This document shows positions 1,141 to 62,708 of a stretch of 64,000 bases of DNA, piece by piece. This stretch comes from Chrysopilus asiliformis. Taxonomy: Eukaryota; Arthropoda; Insecta; Diptera; Rhagionidae. The translations under genes were made by a program, and so were the position numbers. The stretch is taken from the NCBI GenBank assembly GCA_964034945.1, contig OZ035960.1:83638148-83702147 (forward strand), in the 5' to 3' direction. The notes below the pieces were generated by a model that saw only the letters and a program-made list of their open reading frames with translations, was not told where the DNA came from and searched no databases. The first letter of the stretch is position 1, and the number at the start of each line of letters is the position of its first letter.

Positions 1141-1374
1141 TACTCTAAACTTTCAGGTGCAAAAAGTGATTCATTTTTCATACTATATTTGAGGCTATCA
1201 GAGCAAGAGTGGCCTAACCCACATGTCGAAATCGTGGGTTTTTTTGTGTTTGAATCACTATCGCGAGTGAGTTTTTAGATAAAATTGTTTGGATGCACAA
1301 AAGAACATTTCAACATTGAGTAATAAAGTCCACAGAATGTTTTTTTTTTCAAAAATTTACAGTCAATAATAGTA

Positions 1375-2308
1375 AAGGGTGGTTAAATTTTAAGGGCCGA
1401 TGTTGAATGTGAACCACACCTAAACGTCAAGTTTTTTTCTGCATTTCATTTGACATTTCTCAATTTCAGACTAACTCAATTTGAACCATGGAAAGATACA
1501 CAATCGAGCAACGCGGTAAAGTTATTCAGGCTTATTATGAAAATGGGCGTTCAAATCAAAATGCATATCGTGCCGATGATGCCGCCAGCCCATAAACCGC
1601 ACCAAACAGTCACTCTTTGTGGGTGCATTGGTTTTTCGACAATCACTCTTGGATTATCATTCGCCCAAATGCGGCTGTTCTGCTTATTGACGAATCCACT
1701 GAGGTGAAAATGTGCCTCATCACTGAAGATGATTTTCTTCGAAAATTGATCATCCACTGTTGCCATTTCTTGCCACCATTCTGACCATTGACGACGCTTG
1801 AAATGGTCAAGAGGCTTTAGTTCTTGAGTCAATTGCACCTTGTAAGCGTGTAAATGCAAGTCTTTATGCATAATGTTCATCAACGACGAGCGTGGGAGGT
1901 GCAATTGTTGGGCACGACGACGAGTTGAGGTTGACGGCTCTTCAGCCACACTATCGCGAACAGCAGCAATATTTTCTGCAGTACGAGCTGTACGAGCATG
2001 CACTGGTGTTTTCACATCTCCTACAGACCCGGTTTGCTCAAATTTTTGCACGATTTTTCCGATTGTACGCACATTTGGACGATTAAATTGACCGAAAAAA
2101 TCACGAAGTGCACGATATGCATTTTGATTTGAACGCCCATTTTCATAATAAGCCTGAATAACTTTAACGCGTTGCTCGATTGTGTATCTTTCCATGGTTC
2201 AAATTGAGTTAGTCTGAAATTGAGAAATGTCAAATGAAATGCAGAAAAAAACTTGACGTTTAGGTGTGGTTCACATTCAACATCGGCCCTTAAAATTTAA
2301 CCACCCTT
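1375..2308 (-). mobile_element. Foldback derivative of a Tc1/mariner element
   Basis: The element has TA on both sides and ends AAGGGTGGTTAAATTTTAAG in inverted orientation. The inverted arms are 199 bp (1375-1573 and 2110-2308), far longer than the terminal repeat alone: each holds the 5' terminus, the leader and the first ~30 codons of the transposase, nearly identical. The element is therefore two 5' ends facing each other, with the 3' half of the transposase and the true 3' terminus replaced. It cannot encode a full enzyme but keeps two usable ends. Confidence 0.88.
1580..2195 (-). pseudogene. Tc1/mariner-superfamily transposase, 3'-truncated
   Basis: About 205 codons stay open from an ATG at 2195 (MERYTIEQR). 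The N-terminal helix-turn-helix region (residues ~1-110) is followed by the start of the DDE domain: FSDEAHF with the first catalytic Asp near residue 160, then GFVNKQNSRIW and VTVWCGLWAGGIIG. The frame breaks exactly there and joins an inverted copy of its own 5' end, so the second and third catalytic acidic residues are missing. Related relics at 29104-29345 and 42923-43525 carry the parts lost here. Encoded product would be inactive as a transposase, though the DNA-binding part could still bind ends. Confidence 0.85.
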
Positions 2309-2376
2309 TACAAAAGTAGAAAAGCTACAAAAACTCGATTATGTGGCTTGGACCACTTTTGCTCTCAACGCCTCAT

Positions 2377-2620
2377 TTATTCTGTGAGAATGTGACTTTT
2401 TTTTTAATATGAAGTACCTCTCCGATTGGTTTTTTATGTTTTGTAGATAACGGATTAAGGAATTTTGGGGAAAAAATGGTAGTGGTACGGAGCCGTTAAG
2501 TTACCGTTAAAAATTTTTTTAAAACAAAAAATATGTTTTTTTTAACGGTCCCTACACATAATTTCTTTTCTATATATTTTTTTTGAAAATCAGGCTTTTC
2601 AACGAACAGATCAAGATTCT
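2377..2620 (+). repeat. Diverged relic of the giant palindrome's arm
   Basis: The blocks GAAGTACCTCTCCGATTG, a short T-rich piece, GGATTAAGGA and CCGTTAAGTTACCGTTA occur in the same order as in the right arm of the palindrome at about 23795-24020. Base differences and indels are many, so this is an old independent copy of the same element's terminal region, without its partner arm or loop. Confidence 0.7.
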
Positions 2621-21728: not shown

Positions 21729-24234
21729 AAAGGCCATAGAGGGATAAGGGAACAAAAAGTGCCCCCCCAGATAGAAGCTTGAAATTTTTTTTGTAAGTTG
21801 CCACCATTACAACAAATAATTTCCCAAAATTTCAGTCCAAAAAAACGAGCAGTTTTGGAGAAAAAAAATAAAATAGGATTTTTTTGAAAAAATTCTAGCT
21901 CCGTAACGGGTTAACCGATTTTGATGAAACTTGTCGCAATTTTTTCGTTGAAAGTCATAGTTTTAAAAAAAAAATCAGAGCAAAAAAATTAAGTGTGAGA
22001 AACCGTTAGGAAAAAATGTTTTTTGTTTTTAAAAAAATATAACGGTAACTTAACGGTTTTGCACCACTTTTATTTTTTTCTCAAATACTCCTTAATCCCT
22101 TACCTACAAAACAAAAAAAAATACAGGGCAATCGGAGAGGTACTTCATATTCAAAAAAACTAAAATGTGAAGGTAGTCACATTATCATATGTGAAAGATG
22201 AATCAATTTGCGAACTAAATAATCCAGGAAAATTAGGATTTAACCTCTTAAAAAATCTTAGTTAACTGGATTTTTGCACAGACCTTTATTTTGACATAAC
22301 AAACAACGTCCCCAAAGTCCATTCCAAAATTGCGCCGGCGTCGTGCGTTATTCAAGGTCAAAGGTCCCGAAAATCAGTTTTTTACGTTTATCTCACTTTG
22401 TACGGGTTATTCGTCTTTTTGAGGTTCAGATGAATTAATCACAATAAAATTCTCTACAAAAAAGGTTAAATACAATTTTCTTGTAGGACAAACAGTTTTC
22501 GAGATACAAGTCGTCAAACTATGCGTCGCACAAAGAAATTGCTATTATTCAAGGTCAAAAGTCAAAAAAATTGTAAATATCTCGCTTTGTATAGCCTGTA
22601 CGCATTTTTTGTGTTCAGAGGAATTACTCCTCCGAAAATTCTCTACAAAAAAGGTTAAATAAAATTTTTTTGTAGGGCGAATAGTTTTCGAGATAGAAGT
22701 TAAGAAACTGTGAACTGTATATTCGTTTCCCCACCGCCATTAAGGTAGAATGCAAGGCACGTTTTTTTAGATGATTTTCCCATTAGGCCTAATCCATATT
22801 TTTCCACCTTCATTCATTTGTTCTCAAAAATGTCCATCCCATTTAACAACAATGTCTTGCAGCCAGTTAGTACATTACTTCCACCAGCACCGAAAGAACT
22901 CCTGAATTCCGTTTTTTGCAACTGCACAAAAGGTTGTGGTTCCAATTGTGGATGCAGAAAAATTGGATTACCGTGCTTCATCGTTTGTAGCTTTTGTCGG
23001 GGTCAATCATGTTTAAATCCTGCTTCTTGTGATATCACTGAATTTAAACGATGTCGATGATTAACTCGATCTTATTGGTGCCTTAACATTAAATGTAAGT
23101 GAAAATGATACCTATATAAGAAAAAGAAAAAGCAGAACGAGAATAAATGAATGAAGGTGGAAAAATATGGATTAGGCCTAATGGGAAAATCATCTAAAAA
23201 AACGTGCCTTGCATTCTACCTTAATGGCGGTGGGAAAACGAATATACAGTTCACAGTTTCTTAACTTCTATCTCGAAAACTATTCGCCCTACAAAAAAAT
23301 TTTATTTAACCTTTTTTGTAGAGAATTTTCGGAGGAGTAATTCCTCTGAACACAAAAAATGCGTACAGGCTATACAAAGCGAGATATTTACAATTTTTTT
23401 GACTTTTGACCTTGAATAATAGCAATTTCTTTGTGCGACGCATAGTTTGACGACTTGTATCTCGAAAACTGTTTGTCCTACAAGAAAATTGTATTTAACC
23501 TTTTTTGTAGAGAATTTTATTGTGATTAATTCATCTGAACCTCAAAAAGACGAATAACCCGTACAAAGTGAGATAAACGTAAAAAACTGATTTTCGGGAC
23601 CTTTGACCTTGAATAACGCACGACGCCGGCGCAATTTTGGAATGGACTTTGGGGACGTTGTTTGTTATGTCAAAATAAAGGTCTGTGCAAAAATCCAGTT
23701 AACTAAGATTTTTTAAGAGGTTAAATCCTAATTTTCCTGGATTATTTAGTTCGCAAATTGATTCATCTTTCACATATGATAATGTGACTACCTTCACATT
23801 TTAGTTTTTTTGAATATGAAGTACCTCTCCGATTGCCCTGTATTTTTTTTTGTTTTGTAGGTAAGGGATTAAGGAGTATTTGAGAAAAAAATAAAAGTGG
23901 TGCAAAACCGTTAAGTTACCGTTATATTTTTTTAAAAACAAAAAACATTTTTTCCTAACGGCTTCTCACACTTAATTTTTTTGCTCTAATTTTTTTTTAA
24001 AACTATGACTTTCAACGAAAAAATTGCGACAAGTTTCATCAAAATCGGTTAATCCGTTACGGAGCTAGAATTTTTTCAAAAAAATCCTATTTTATTTTTT
24101 TTCTCCAAAACTGCTCGTTTTTTTGGACTGAAATTTTGGGAAATTATTTGTTGTAATGGTGGCAACTTACAAAAAAAATTTCAAGCTTCTATCTGGGGGG
24201 GCACTTTTTGTTCCCTTATCCCTCTATGGCCTTT
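21729..24234. mobile_element. 2.5-kb near-perfect palindromic element with coding loop
   Basis: Two ~1097-bp arms (21729-22825 and 23138-24234) are reverse complements with only scattered substitutions and no net length difference; a 312-bp spacer separates them. The outer ends read AAAGGCCATAGAGGGATAAG. Inside each arm are two tandem diverged ~190-bp units, each holding TTCAAGGTCAAA, CTACAAAAAAGGTTAAATA and AGTTTTCGAGATA. An old relic of the same arm lies at 2377-2620, so this is a mobile family rather than a one-off inversion. No target duplication was recognised. It may be a deletion derivative of a larger DNA transposon with ~1.1-kb terminal inverted repeats. Confidence 0.85.
22830..23060 (+). 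CDS. Small cysteine-rich (CXC-like) protein in the palindrome loop
   Basis: Starting from the ATG at 22830 the frame encodes 76 residues ending TGA at 23058. After STLLPPAPKELLNSV comes a cysteine array: C-x-C-x3-C-x3-C-x-C-x6-C-x3-C-x2-C-x4-C (FCNCTKGCGSNCGCRK, then GLPCFIVCSFCRGQSC). This is the spacing of the metal-binding CXC-type (tesmin/TSO1-like) motif. From memory, LLPPAP followed by this array is found at the C terminus of larger, poorly described insect proteins, so this is probably the last part of a transposon gene with the rest deleted. The frame is open a little upstream into the arm. The right arm starts with an AATAAA just downstream of the stop. Expression is unknown. Confidence 0.6.
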   Translation: MSIPFNNNVLQPVSTLLPPAPKELLNSVFCNCTKGCGSNCGCRKIGLPCFIVCSFCRGQSCLNPASCDITEFKRCR

Positions 24235-42922: not shown

Positions 42923-43525
42923 AAGGGTGTTTTTTTTAGACGTGTGGTTTTCAATCTGGCACTACTTTTTTCGGAGTTGGTCTTTTTGACAGTTGTCACT
43001 TGATTTATGCTCAGTTTGGTTTGCCATTTCGTCAAACGACCATGAAGCGCGTCGCACGTTCGGTGAATGGGCCCAAAATGAGATGGCCACCGATCCCGAT
43101 TTTCACAAGAAAATTTTGTTCAGCGATGAAACTCACTTTTGGTTGAATGGGTACGTCAATAAGCAAAATTGTCGCATTTGGAGGGATGGTAATCCACAAG
43201 CCATTCTTCAGACGCCGTTACATCCTCAAAAAGTCACTGTTTGGTGTGCTCTATGGGCAGAGGGAATCATTGGTCCATATTTCTTCAAAAATGAAGCCGG
43301 CCATAATGTTACAGTCAATAGGGAACGCTATAGAGCCATGATTAATGACTTTTTCGTGCCTGAATTGGAGGATGTTGATGTGGACGACCTTTGGTTCCAA
43401 CAAGACGGCGCTACATGCCATACAGCCAACGAAACAATCAATTTATTGAAGGAAACTTTTGGTGAGCGCATTATCTCGCGTCGTGGGCCTGTGGCGTGGC
43501 CTCCAAGATCGTGCGATTTAACACC
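42923..43525 (+). pseudogene. Tc1/mariner transposase, both ends truncated
   Basis: TA then AAGGGTGTTTTTTTT marks a left end like that of the 1375 element. After ~95 bp of leader the sequence jumps into the DDE domain: ARRTFGEWAQNEMATDPDFH, FSDETHF (first Asp), WLNGYVNKQNCRIW, VTVWCALWAEGIIGPYFF, RYRAMINDFFVPELE, FQQDGATCHT (second Asp), and PRSCDLTP (third Asp). I count 36 residues between the second and third Asp. All three catalytic residues are present in one open frame, but the N-terminal DNA-binding domain and the C-terminal tail are gone; the frame runs into a poly-C tract at 43533. Confidence 0.9.
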
Positions 43526-45463
43526 GGGGAGCCCCCCCCCCCCTTGAAAAATACACGCACGCCATTGGAAAAACAAAAATCGCTGACATGCAGTTTTTGC
43601 ATTCTGTTTTGAGCCACTTTTGTATTTTGGGGGTCAGTGACAGTGGGGGTCAGTGATTTTTCCACTTTTTCAAATGTTGCAAATGGGTTAATTATTTTCG
43701 CCTCCGGAATGGATTTTTATAAAAATTTCGCCTGTGGTTCACTGATTTCTCTTATATTTTGAAAATAAGTACAAAATTTATAAACATAGTACGGAAAAAT
43801 TCGATTCGCGAATCGAAAATAAAATTCTTTTGCGAACGATTCAAATGTCTCAACTTTTCAATTCGCGAATGAAAAAGAATCGAGAAGAATCATTCTTTTA
43901 ACTGTTTTAACTCAACTTTTCAATTCGCGAATGAAAAAGAATCGAAAAGAATCATTCTTTTTCCGTTTCCTTTTCGTAGAGCTAAATTGGAGTATTCGTT
44001 TATCCGCTTGTCACTTATAGTTTTAATAAATTCCCCCACCCCCGCCCCCATCCCAACCACCAGATCAACAATTTACGCCCCTCTTACCACTCCCTTTTTT
44101 TTAGTGAACATCACTTTAGAAAATTATCTTTCGATCATAAAAGGACACTATTTTATTCAGCTCAATTCGCTGACATCCTCGATGAATGCATGCCAGTATA
44201 ACTATAGATCGCTTATTGACCCAAACAATAGATTGTCATAATAACATAAATTACAATTAGTCACAACTATAATCAAATCATCAAATATAGAGATTTGGGC
44301 AATATTTTATGACAAGTTTGAAGAAGTCGTTTATTCGTATTTTATTATCTATTGGGTAGAATATCTATTTAGTTCGACTTGCGGGTAAATCAAAGTCCGG
44401 ATATATTTATATCGAAATAGAAAGCTTTATTGTATGTCGGAAAGCGATTTTTCTTACTTCAATCGAATTTTCCGATAATAATCAGATCAATTTCTGTATG
44501 CCATAACATATACCCTCAGACGAAAACGTACTTACGCTTGACTAGATATGTGTGAAAAAGGGAAATATGCCATCATTGTAAGTGAATGTAAAAGAATTTG
44601 ACCAGGAAATTCTGTACGCTTTCCTAGTGATGAAAAAACATAACAGACTTGGCTAGTTGAGGTATTTGGAAAAACGAGGGTGTTTCCATAGTAACTGCCA
44701 TCATTTTAAAATATTCCTGTTTTGTGTTCTCCCCTTTTGTCACCATTTGAGAATAGATTCCCAGCCAGTGTAGAATCAGAAACAAATCCGGTATCCATCT
44801 AAAATCGGTGGAACGCGGGCGTTGGACCACATTTTTGTTTAAGAGATTATTAGGGTGGCTTCAAGGTGTTCGGATTAATCGCTGTAAGGGACCATGACAC
44901 TGTAGCTCCTGCCCTGATATGGTTGTTTTAGTTGTTGTTGTTTGAATTGTGGTGAAATATAGGTTTTTATTACTATGAGACAGCATGTGCGACTAAAGTG
45001 TGTACAACCATTAAAGCACACCCTAAACATTGCAAGAAGTCCTTGTTTCGCAATTGAAGATATTACGGAAATTGAACTTCACATAAATATGTTACATACT
45101 CATGTGTATCACTGGAGTGTGATAAACAGAAAACATCAAAAAAATTATATGATATTGTCTGAATGGCAATAACATTGCATCACGTGCACAGTTCCGAATT
45201 TTATGAGACGAAAATATTTTTTTCGTTCAAAACAGTTCGAACTAACCGAAGATGGTAAAATAAAACATGAAAATAGCGATTGGTTTTTCGATGTAGGCAA
45301 CATTTTCTAAATTATGCGAGTTGATATTCTTGAATGTATATTTTATAAGGGTAATAATGATTTGAATGAAGAAATAAAACATTTGAAAATCACAAACAAA
45401 ATCGGTTATCTACTTTGAGGAATTTTCAATTTTAGCAGAATCAGAGAAAATTGTAATAAATAT
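43526..45463. other. Poly-C junction and unassigned sequence
   Basis: GGGGAGCCCCCCC at 43525 begins unrelated DNA. A ~48-bp unit with TTCAATTCGCGAATGAAAAA and AATCATTCTTT is tandemly duplicated at 43855-43965. The frame 44975-45172 and the minus frame 44624-44830 have no known domain. Confidence 0.45.
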
Positions 45464-52758: not shown

Positions 52759-54233
52759 TCTATATATATAAAAATGGATGTTTGTCTGTCTGTTTGTTTG
52801 AGATTACAAAACTCGAAAACTACTGGACCGATTTTTACGCGGTTTTTAGCAAAATGATCTGTGTTGCCAGGAGCAGGTTTTTAGCTATGTAGATTTTTCA
52901 AAATTTGAAACGGAAGGTCCTGTAAGGATAATGAAAATATCCTTTTTCCCATTTTTCCCCAGAAAAATTTGCATTATAGGGTTTTTGGGGTCGGTGATCA
53001 CGAATCCGGTATTAGATTTTCAAAATTCGAAACGGAAGGTCCTGTAAGGATAACGAAAATATCCTTTTTCCCATTTCTCCCCGGAAAAATTTGCATTATA
53101 GGGTTTTTGGGGTCGTTGATCACGAATTCTGTATTAGATTTTCAAAATTCGAAACCGAAGGTCCTGTAAGGATAATGAAAATATCATTTTTCCCTTTTTT
53201 TCCCGGAAAAATTGGCATTATTGGATTTTTGGGGTCGCTGATTACGAATCCGGTATTAGATTTGCAAAACTGAAGCGGAAGTTCCTGAAAGGATAACGCA
53301 AATATCCTTTTTCCCATTATTCCCCGGAAAAATTGGCATTATGTTTGGGATCGCTGATCACGAATCCGATATTAGATTTTCAAAATTCGAAACGAAAAGT
53401 CCTGTAAGGATAAACATCCTTTTTCCCGTTTTTCGCCGGAAAAATCGGTATAAGGGGGTTTTTGGGGCGCTGATCACGAATTCGGTATTAGATTTTCAAA
53501 ATTCGAAACGGAAGGTCCTGTAAGGATAATGAAAACATCCTTTTTCCCATTTTTCCCCGGAAAAATTGGCATTATGTTTGGGATCGCTGATCACGAATCC
53601 GATATTAGATTTTCAAAATTCGAAACGGAAGGTCCTGTAAGGATAACTCACATATCCTTTTTCCCATTTTTCCCCGGAAAAATTGGCATTATAGGGTTTT
53701 GGGGAAAAATCGGTATAAGGGGGTTTTTGGGGCGCTGATCACGAATCCGATATTAGATTTTCAAAATTCGAGGTGCTGTAAGAATAACGCAAATATCCTT
53801 TTTCCAGTTTTTAGTGGGAAAAATCGTCATTAGGGGGTTTTTGGGGTCGCTGATCACGAATTTCAAAATTCTAACCGAAAACTCCTGCAAGGTTAACGCA
53901 AATGTTCTTTTTCCAATTTTTCTTGAAACAATTGCCACTAAGGGGTTTTCGGGGTCGCTGATCGCGAATCCGGTGTTTGATTTTTCAAATGCTAAACGGA
54001 AGGTCCTGTAAGGATAATGGAAATGTCCTTTTTCCAATTTTTCTTGCAAAAACAGTCTTTGGGAGGTTTTCAGGGTTGCTTATCACGAATCTGGAGTTGG
54101 AATTTCAAAATTCGAAACGGAAGGTCCTGTAAGGATAACATTTTTTTCCCAAAACTTTTTAAGTTATTTATGGTTTTTTGGCATTCTAAAATTTATACAA
54201 AAAACTTTTAGCTGCCAACGAAGGGTCTGCTAG
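52759..54233 (+). mobile_element. Helitron family H1, expanded copy
   Basis: Begins TCTATATATATAAAAATGG, ends GCCAACGAAGGGTCTGCTAG, and lies between A and T: TC...CTAG with A/T insertion. The 5' part reads GTTTGTCTGTCTGTTTGTTT and ACTACTGGACCGATTTTTAC. The body is almost wholly the tandem array described separately. No Rep/helicase coding sequence. Confidence 0.87.
52905..54140. repeat. Eleven-unit ~120-bp tandem array
   Basis: Each unit has CGGAAGGTCCTGTAAGGATA, ATCCTTTTTCCCATTTTTCC, GGAAAAATTGGCATTATAGG, GTTTTTGGGGTCGCTGATCA and CGAATCCGGTATTAGATTTT. Unit starts fall near 52914, 53033, 53155, 53277, 53394, 53509, 53627, 53769, 53877, 53998 and 54117, spaced mostly 115-122 bp. Central units are most alike, outer ones diverged. 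Open frames repeat the same peptide by periodicity and are not genes. Confidence 0.93.
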
Positions 54234-55167: not shown

Positions 55168-55553
55168 CGACACAAACTAATCATAAGTAGACTAACATTT
55201 TCATTCAATCCATTCTAGAACAAAATTGAATTTCAACTTCCAAAAAATAAATACCCATAGCAGCCACCCCAGCCGTAGCAGCCATGAGCTTTTCCGCCAG
55301 CAGCACAAGACTTCGAAAATAGCAAAAGAAAGATAAAATGCGATCAACAAAACGAACAGATTTATCGGACTTTTACTGCTGGAAAGCTTGCATCACGAAG
55401 TCTTGTGCTGCTGGCGGAAAAGCTCATGGCTGCTACGGCTGGAGTGGCTGCTATGGGTATTTATTTTTTGGAAGTTGAAATTCAATTTTGTTCTAGAATC
55501 GATTGAATGAAAATGTTAGCCTGCTTATGATTAGTTTGTGCCTGCGACTTCAA
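55168..55553. repeat. ~150-bp inverted repeat
   Basis: Arms at 55168-55315 and 55398-55553 match closely, including CCCATAGCAGCCACCCCAGC, AGCAGCCATGAGCTTTTCCG and CCAGCAGCACAAGACTTCG. The right arm has small differences near its outer end. The spacer is ~80 bp. Arms are less AT-rich than the surroundings and could derive from an exon, but no protein family is recognised. Confidence 0.75.
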
Positions 55554-58202: not shown

Positions 58203-58850
58203 TACCTTTTTATATATCACCAGCAAAAATGGAGACAAACCTTCCTGTGATCGGTCTTTCAAAATTTCCAAACACAAAAAAATGCGATTTCATCAATTTT
58301 TTAGACACGAAGGATACAGGTTTTGCTTCGCTTTGTCTTGGCTCGGCCCTCCTGTATTCACTCAATTTTTCTTACTTATGGCATTTTCGACTGGCGTCAG
58401 AGAACAAATAATCTAGAGAATAAACTCTTAGAACAAATTTTTAGAGAAAATTTTTCCACTGTGAGATGAAGCAAGAGGATCCGATGTAACACGGAAAAAA
58501 TTATCCATTCGATTCCTCCGTCTCATTGAATAGATACGACGAAAATGATTAGAAAATGTTCTCTCTGCTTCGTGCTCCCTAGTCTAAAAGTAATTAACTT
58601 TTAGGCCGTAGCTAGTGAATGATAGGGACATTTTTCCCCCCTTCGAAGGGGAAATTTGTCAAAAATTTGTTCGGCAGAGTTTTTTTCTATATATTACTTA
58701 TTCTATGCTGGCGTGCCCTTTTGCTCTACAGTTCCTTGCTCTGAGAACTTGTGTTCGACTGGGATTTTTTTATCGCTCGAAAAGAGTTAAGTATTCGAGT
58801 AACAAACGTACTCAGTTTTTGAGCAATTTTGTGATCTGCCGAACGTAGTC
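58203..58850. other. Remainder of repeat K and unassigned DNA
   Basis: 58205-58345 continues repeat K (GAGACAAACCTT, TTTCCAAACACAAAAA), matching 40960-41030. The remainder contains a GTTCGGCAGA/TCTGCCGAAC inverted pair (58670 and 58835) but no gene. Confidence 0.45.
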
Positions 58851-61938: not shown

Positions 61939-62708
61939 CATTTAATAAGTGAAAATTTTATCAATTATACTTACTTAATATCGGCCAAAAATTAACTTTT
62001 ACACTTTTCCCACGATTATTCTACCGTCTTCTATCGTCAAATCACTTAATTCAACTGCTCGCACTCTGCCAGAAAACCAAAACAAACAAGAAAAACGTTT
62101 TGTAACGGGAAATCGAGACAGGAAAAACCAACAAAAAAAATAAACCAATGACACCCTCGATGACCTGCCCCCGAAATTGTCATCGAAACCTAGAAGTATA
62201 TAAATTTTGAATGACGCGTCGAATAATTGAGCGTTTCAAGGGGAGAGGGGCTAAATTTGTTGCTTGTTGTATGGGGTTTAAGTGTAAATGTGTTTGAAAA
62301 CCGATGACCAAAATCTACTAGGGTATGTAACTATACCCTAGTAGATTTTGGTCATCGGTTTTCAAACACATTTACACTTAAACCCCATACAACAAGCAAC
62401 AAATTTAGCCCCTCTCCCCTTGAAACGCTCAATTATTCGACGCGTCATTCAAAATTTATATACTTCTAGGTTTCGATGACAATTTCGGGGACAGGTCATC
62501 GAGGGTGTCATTTGTTTATTTTTTTGTTGGTTTTTCCTGTCTCGATTTCCCGTTACAAAACGTTTTTCTTGTTTGTTTTGGTTTCCGGGCAGTTGAATTG
62601 AGTGATTTGACGATAGAAGACGGTAGAATAATCGTGGGAAAAGTGTAAAAGTTAATTTTTGGCCGATATTAAGTAAGTATAATTGATAAAATTTTAACTT
62701 ATTAAATG
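61939..62708. repeat. 0.77-kb inverted duplication at the 5' end of the DUF4806 gene
   Basis: Left arm 61939-62326, right arm 62333-62708, loop of six bases (GTAACT). Arms share ACCCTAGTAGATTTTGGTCA, TTAAACCCCATACAACAAGC, ATACTTCTAGGTTTCGATGA and GACGATAGAAGACGGTAGAA. The right arm lacks nine bases (near GGCAGTTGAATT) and has a few substitutions. Read away from the centre, each arm ends in a strong donor-like ATTAAGTAAGTATAATTG. In the left arm the frame AVELSDLTIEDGRIIVGKV lies just upstream of the gene's first recognised exon and may be its missing coding start. Confidence 0.88.

What the first reader, a model, noticed from the sequence alone, without database searches (positions are those of the whole stretch)
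21729..24234. Giant near-perfect palindrome with a protein-coding loop
Two 1.1-kb arms, equal in length and almost identical, flank a 312-bp loop holding a complete-looking cysteine-array ORF. Transcription through it would give one of the longest simple hairpin RNAs in such a genome, a potential Dicer substrate, with a small metal-binding protein read from the loop. The arms carry tandem ~190-bp units, and a relic at 2377-2620 shows that the arm is mobile. It may be a new foldback-type family or a deletion derivative of a large transposon with huge terminal repeats.
Basis: partly seen in the sequence, partly recalled or inferred. Interest (0 to 1): 0.82.

Follow-up and report, generated by a model that had tools for sequence, protein, structure and literature searches.

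The report
Composite fold-back transposon with copied arms
The giant palindrome is one copy of a repeated jumping-gene family in an insect-like genome: the end of one transposon is fused to the end of a second, and the fused end appears on both sides, which suggests that one arm was copied onto the other.

Summary
The palindrome is real: arms 21729-22825 and 23139-24234 (1097/1096 nt, 5 mismatches, one 1-nt gap) around a 313-nt loop. It is not single-copy: its exact 21-nt terminus occurs 253 times in the 429-Mb genome (control 0). In 28 of 28 sampled copies with both ends the element reads AAA|...|TTT without target-site duplication. Empty sites support insertion at AAATTT, the rule published for Spy transposons. 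No transposase was found.

Each arm is composite. The outer ~490 nt belong to a long-TIR (terminal inverted repeat) family also seen without the inner part. The inner ~606 nt are an end of a second transposon, whose free copies mostly have 3-bp duplications and carry the last part of a gene whose relatives are XPG/FEN1-like nucleases with a nine-cysteine tail; probably Academ-like. The junction lies at the same base in both arms (42 facing pairs genome-wide), so one half was probably copied onto the other (TIR extension, as in Galileo).

The loop ORF is a frameshifted C-terminal relic; its ATG adjoins an inverted 11-nt micro-copy, which looks like a snap-back scar. New variant of a known kind.

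The parts
21729..22825 (+). left arm of the palindrome (1097 nt)
   Evidence: 99.45% inverted identity to 23139-24234
23139..24234 (-). right arm of the palindrome (1096 nt)
21729..21731 (.). AAA: left half of the probable AAATTT target (identical in copies, so it could also be read as the first bases of the element)
   Evidence: 28 of 28 copies with both ends start AAAGGCC; empty sites AAA|TTT
24232..24234 (.). TTT: right half of the probable AAATTT target
   Evidence: 28 of 28 copies end GGCCTTT
21729..22219 (+). outer part of the left arm: end of the AAATTT-targeting, Spy-like long-TIR family
   Evidence: occurs without the inner part in L045, L047, L048, which lack about 23 nt that the composites have just outside the junction
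23745..24234 (-). outer part of the right arm
   Evidence: mirror of 21729-22219
22220..22825 (+). inner part of the left arm: B end (TAATCCAGGAAAATTAGG...) of the second, Academ-like transposon
   Evidence: matches ends of free copies L037, L039-L041, L043
23139..23744 (-). inner part of the right arm, B end; begins next to the stop codon of the gene as read in L038
22348..22700 (+). two diverged tandem units, left arm (22348-22511, 22545-22700)
23264..23616 (-). two diverged tandem units, right arm (23264-23419, 23453-23616)
22826..23138 (+). loop: relic of the 3' coding end of a gene whose relatives are XPG/FEN1-like nucleases
   Evidence: 88% to L038 with 31 gap columns of 352; protein relatives
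22830..23060 (+). 76-aa loop ORF: nine-cysteine tail only, frameshifted by an 11-bp deletion
22831..22841 (+). micro-inverted junction TGTCCATCCCA (reverse complement of TGGGGATGGACA, less one C), next to the ORF's ATG
   Evidence: exact in 16 distinct sampled loci and with one base changed in 4 more; normal order in 7 other composite loci
2398..2606 (-). old relic of the outer part of the arm only (78%)
58398..58707 (+). paralogous empty site for another copy (L033): AAA|TTT without duplication
   Evidence: 96% over 310 nt

Best explanation
A non-autonomous composite fold-back transposon. An outer family with ~560-bp TIRs (Spy-like: inserts at AAATTT without duplication) received, inside one TIR at position ~490, a copy of a second transposon family (Academ-like: 3-bp duplications, XPG-type nuclease plus nine-cysteine tail). 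The half bearing this insertion was then copied onto the other half (snap-back synthesis or conversion between the inverted arms during repair), replacing the middle. The TIR thus grew from ~0.56 to ~1.1 kb and both arms became near-identical. The composite was afterwards amplified through its outer ends, presumably by a transposase made elsewhere. The loop ORF is a passenger relic. Shown here: copy number, composite structure, the same junction on both arms, target rule, micro-inversion, nuclease-like fold of relatives. Inferred: Spy and Academ assignment, the repair mechanism, the order of events, the source of transposase.
For: Copies and termini. Ends AAAGGCC/GGCCTTT in 28 of 28; flanks share no more bases than swapped flanks do (3-bp match in 1 of 28, 0.48 expected; 4 bp or more in 0). 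Empty sites: L033 exact, in this window; L011 with a 1-nt indel beside AAATTT; L021 AAACTT in 10 of 11 satellite alignments. Outer family without the inner part: L047 and L048, TIR 557-560 bp at 98.0-99.8%, unbroken past position 490 in both arms, and L045. Free inner copies have one A and one B end in 5 of 5 with both ends identified, of 7 inner-type loci fetched; duplications TAA, GTC, TAT, TTC, and TGTA in the fifth. Composite junction 52 + 46, control 0: 42 facing pairs, 14 singles; B end on both sides in 29 of 29 composite loci examined. Arm differences (first 1000 nt): median 4.5 within elements, 34 between; own 4, nearest other 30. Micro-inverted junction. Nuclease relatives.
Against: No autonomous copy or transposase of either family was found: 54 PF13359 places compared with the 100 listed termini (of 253), nearest 6.1 kb away. 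No unmirrored nested progenitor was found; its query did not complete. In 10 of 26 elements the opposite arm is strictly nearer than every other sampled arm; in 16 it is not, 11 of them with another sampled arm within 5 changes of each arm. L009's empty sites are not clean AAATTT. The three outer-only copies lack ~23 nt present in the composites, so none is the direct progenitor. The shared micro-inversion and junction may each be one event spread by amplification, so they do not show repeated copying.
Confidence: 0.75

Rival explanations
1. No arm copying: a palindromic second transposon with B ends on both sides inserted once into the exact centre of a loopless palindromic outer element (...GAACTAAA|TTTAGTTC...).
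For: It would give the same junction on both sides in one step; the centre would read AAATTT. B ends on both sides are what one search shows.
Against: 5 of 5 free inner copies with both ends identified have one A and one B end; the 3 outer-only copies fetched all have loops; it needs an insertion without the duplication seen at free inner copies; it does not explain the micro-inverted junction. The samples are small.
Confidence: 0.12
2. A single natural transposon with ~1.1-kb TIRs (deletion derivative of a large element).
For: Long TIRs; loops of different lengths with different extents of the coding region.
Against: Outer and inner parts each exist without the other, with their own ends and target rules; the inverted arms end at different points in different copies (1005-1097 nt in the uninterrupted ones).
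Confidence: 0.08
3. Assembly artefact or isolated segmental inverted duplication.
For: Near-perfect palindromes are a known hazard of assembly (general knowledge).
Against: Dozens of paired copies at unrelated sites with diverged sequences and distinct flanks. No reads were available to check any one locus.
Confidence: 0.02

Closest known systems
Galileo (P superfamily) copies with two extended or recombinant TIRs, Drosophila mojavensis (PMC3573991; abstract start and passages seen)
   Same: Long internally repetitive TIRs; TIRs of one copy 98-100% identical; TIR extension by recruitment of internal sequence; longest TIRs 1,260 and 1,241 bp; the longest TIRs are in non-autonomous copies
   Different: P-type transposase and 7-bp duplications there; here AAATTT without duplication, and the recruited sequence is the end of a second transposon family
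Spy group of PHIS transposons (PMC4482050, PMC11304231; passages seen; the founding paper is not held)
   Same: Insertion at AAATTT without target-site duplication; TIR length varies, 15 to 467 bp in the five elements tested there
   Different: No Spy transposase found in any copy here; arms 1.1 kb and composite
Academ superfamily (XPG nuclease, Cys8 finger, 3-4 bp duplications: recalled; the AcademH paper is not held)
   Same: Relatives of the gene are XPG/FEN1-like nucleases with a cysteine-rich tail; 3-bp (one 4-bp) duplications in free inner copies
   Different: Only the 3' coding end was seen in copies of this genome; transposase not found; the window holds only the tail relic
Foldback (FB), Tetris and Tm1 long-TIR elements (search listing and abstract starts only; otherwise recalled)
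   Same: Fold-back architecture with repeated units inside the arms
   Different: Other target rules as recalled; I saw no composite end in the listing, which is not a search for one

Membership tests
Spy (PHIS) | insertion at AAATTT without target-site duplication | tested here: met
   28 of 28 copies AAA...TTT (the arm query itself began with AAA, so copies lacking it could have been missed), no duplication beyond chance; empty site exact for L033, near-exact for L011, AAACTT for L021, unclear for L009
Spy (PHIS) | PHIS-type DDE transposase of over 500 aa in autonomous copies | tested here: inconclusive
   PF13359 rings at 150 places or more (150 of 544 candidates scored); 54 of them on the stretch covered by the 100 listed termini, nearest 6.1 kb from one; 153 termini were not listed
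Academ (inner part) | XPG-type nuclease with a cysteine-rich finger (that this defines Academ is recalled) | tested here: met
   for relatives: EXO1 E=0.0064 by profile; 54 fold matches at E up to 0.001, the 50 listed naming FEN1/flap endonuclease, EXO1, XPG/Rad2 or XRN/Rat1, but with TM-scores of 0.17-0.51 by target and rmsd 8-24 A; nine nearly invariant cysteines
Academ (inner part) | 3-4 bp target-site duplication (recalled) | tested here: met
   TAA, GTC, TAT, TTC, and TGTA, in 5 of 5 free copies with both ends
Academ (inner part) | Academ DDE transposase | not tested
   no full-length copy seen; no listed genome match reaches upstream of residue 106 of P0009 (120 of 321 candidates scored)
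Galileo / P superfamily | 7-bp target-site duplication | tested here: not met
   0 of 28
Galileo / P superfamily | extended TIRs that recruit internal sequence | tested here: met
   TIR 557-560 bp in L047 and L048, ~1.1 kb in the composite
hairpin RNA / Dicer substrate | transcription and 21-nt small RNAs from both arms | not testable with these tools
   no expression data

The most novel reading that the evidence does not exclude
Arm regeneration is a regular step in the life of this element: excision or replication leaves half-elements that are restored by snap-back copying of the surviving arm, so any insertion into one arm is automatically doubled. A transposon-encoded flap nuclease of the XPG/FEN1 type, from the second family, could trim the hairpin ends and thereby drive palindrome formation in both families.
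Probability: 0.12. Interest if true: 0.65.

Novelty: new variant of a known kind. Interest (0 to 1): 0.42.

Why it matters
How long-TIR fold-back transposons arise and keep their arms identical is usually inferred from similarity alone (my general knowledge). Here a foreign transposon end serves as a tag: it sits at the same base in both arms of dozens of copies, with a micro-inverted scar at the loop edge in 20 sampled loci. That makes a copying step readable from sequence. It also ties two different transposon families into one mobile unit, and shows fragments of an animal nuclease-plus-cysteine-tail gene, for which I found no clear Pfam family, being spread by it.

Tried and rejected
The 6.65-kb copy at C1:89396426 looked like an autonomous candidate; it is a composite with further sequence in the middle and no long ORF (longest open frame 148 codons). 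L038 looked like a full gene; it is an element fragment near what I read as DOT1L-like exons. Pfam gave no match for the loop ORF at E up to 1 and no clear family for relatives: scattered matches under the cut-offs where these are shown; over 59 relatives no family matched more than 6, and there were weak matches to NYN_YacP (3 members, best E 0.0037) and XPG_N (1 member, E 0.12). P0002 found no relative in the PDB (best E 0.24, not related); P0009 none. The first structure model (P0009) was too poor and its fold matches meaningless; a deeper alignment gave a better one. PF13359 did not lead to a transposase for these ends. The search for the unmirrored nested progenitor did not complete. Early in the work I took the loop deletion for 13 bp; the alignment shows 11 bp. 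My first reading of L034 and L021 as breaks at the composite junction (note) was wrong: they are other inserts nearby; L022 breaks off at arm position 450.

Full report
OBSERVATION. The palindrome is as described. Arms 21729-22825 and 23139-24234 match over 1097 columns with five mismatches and one 1-nt gap; the loop is 313 nt. Each arm has two diverged units 189-197 nt apart. The relic at 2398-2606 matches only arm positions 216-431, at 78%.

COPIES. The window lies in contig 1 of an unnamed 429-Mb genome. An arm query gave 42 matches at 94-100%, the own two arms included, with 40 of 677 candidates scored. The exact 21-nt terminus occurs 128 times forward and 125 reverse, control 0. Of the 100 places listed, 82 form 41 facing pairs, 928 to 6652 bp long, median 2374, and 18 are unpaired; 14 of the 41 hold the exact composite junction. 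I fetched 28 stretches, which with the own copy gave 29 loci; 28 have both ends and L022 lacks its left end.

TARGET RULE. The 28 read AAAGGCC...GGCCTTT in 28 of 28; the arm query began with AAA, so copies without it could have been missed. The flanks share no more than swapped flanks do: a 3-bp match in 1 of 28 (0.48 expected), none of 4 to 9 bp. I joined flanks and searched the fetched loci and the window for unfilled paralogues; four elements gave alignments across the junction. L033 has an exact one in this very window (58398-58707, 96%): AAA|TTT. L011 has related empty copies in L024, L026 and L028 with AAATTT and a 1-nt indel next to it. L021 sits in a 124-bp satellite whose units read AAACTT in 10 of 11 alignments. 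L009's relatives are old (73-84%) and give no clean answer. Insertion at AAATTT without duplication is the published rule of Spy transposons (PMC4482050 and PMC11304231, passages seen). No transposase was found: 54 PF13359 places on the stretch covered by the listed termini lie 6.1 kb or more from any of them. Spy is therefore a target-rule assignment only.

THE ARM IS COMPOSITE. Several elements match the arm only from about position 491 inward (L037, L039-L041, L043). These are free-standing near-palindromes of 2242-2331 bp whose two ends differ: A = TAATACAGG..., B = TAATCCAGG... Four of five have 3-bp duplications (TAA, GTC, TAT, TTC); the fifth has TGTA on both sides. Two more inner-type loci, L038 and L042, showed one end each. 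Conversely L045, L047 and L048 have the outer part only. In L047 and L048 the TIRs are 557-560 bp at 98.0-99.8%, and the sequence runs on unbroken past position 490 in both arms. These three lack about 23 nt that the composites have just outside the junction, so they are relatives, not the direct progenitor. The window's arm is thus an outer end (21729-22219) joined to a B end (22220-22825), mirrored on the right.

COPYING. The exact composite junction occurs 52 + 46 times, control 0; 84 of the 98 form 42 facing pairs and 14 are single. The own element is not among the 98, as it differs by one base. An ordinary insertion would leave an A end on one side and a B end on the other; in 29 of 29 composite loci examined both junctions have a B end. 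Arm differences (first 1000 nt; L021, L022 and L034 dropped because an arm is interrupted or lacks its end) have median 4.5 within elements (range 0-23, 26 elements), against 34 between elements; the own arms differ by 4, and the nearest other arm by 30. In 10 of 26 elements the opposite arm is strictly the nearest of all sampled arms. In 16 it is not; 11 of these have another sampled arm within 5 changes of each arm, as young subfamilies would. At the loop edge, 16 distinct loci including the own one carry TGTCCATCCCA and 4 more carry it with one base changed, where 7 other composite loci and the free inner copies carry TGGGGATGGACA or one-base variants: an inverted micro-copy, which snap-back synthesis would leave. 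It is probably one event spread by amplification. L019, L020, L035 and L046 lack the motif. Galileo shows the same kind of TIR extension, and its authors propose repair with the opposite TIR as template (PMC3573991, passages seen).

THE LOOP GENE. The 76-aa ORF (22830-23060) is the end of a larger protein. Its ATG adjoins the inverted micro-copy. An 11-bp deletion against L038 shifts the frame. The deletion was matched in 9 distinct sampled loci, own included; 15 other composite loci match the undeleted form, and loops of some copies hold open frames of up to 154 codons. Protein searches gave 4, 16 and 202 relatives (120 of the 202 listed), from ants, wasps, bugs, beetles, moths, spiders, a mussel, a sea spider and a fish among the named ones. 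I found no clear Pfam family for them. A profile of 59 relatives finds Exonuclease 1 (E 0.0064). The model of P0026 (pLDDT 82.9, pTM 0.79) has 54 fold matches at E up to 0.001; the 50 listed name FEN1 or other flap endonucleases, EXO1, XPG/Rad2 and XRN/Rat1, though TM-scores are modest (0.17-0.51 by target) and rmsd large. Nine cysteines are nearly invariant in the tail, and all nine are present in the loop relic. In this genome no listed match reaches further upstream than residue 106 of P0009 (120 of 321 candidates scored). XPG nuclease plus cysteine finger plus 3-4-bp duplications is how I recall the Academ superfamily; the AcademH paper was not held.

VERDICT. A composite fold-back transposon family, non-autonomous in every copy read, probably formed by nesting and arm copying. 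It is a new variant of a known kind.

Noticed in passing
window 61939-62708: A second near-perfect palindrome, 770 bp at 95%, without a loop, ends CATTTAATAAG...CTTATTAAATG; the arm query did not match it.
   Followed up: partly
window 55171-55540: 370-bp palindromic, MITE-like element flanked by cctgcga on both sides, a possible 7-bp duplication.
   Followed up: partly
window 1372-2311: About 940-bp element with 202-bp inverted ends at 99.5% around an ORF on the minus strand (1551-2195); a similar-looking ORF at 42993-43547. I read both as mariner/IS630-type transposase; no family search was made.
   Followed up: no
window 52890-54139: Arrays of ~122-bp tandem units (52890-53704 and 53858-54139), with related units elsewhere in the window.
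   Followed up: no
window 58398-58707: Unfilled paralogue of the insertion site of copy L033.
   Followed up: yes
L038:4491-7999: A fragment of the inner element lies among open frames that read like the DOT1L/grappa histone methyltransferase (recognised from memory).
   Followed up: no
L034:5451-6914: A 1.46-kb insert, ends matching inverted over 29 bp (TCTATTAGG...), within the arm near the composite junction.
   Followed up: partly
genome G000: Many PF13359 (DDE_Tnp_4) matches, at least 150, some with long open frames.
   Followed up: partly
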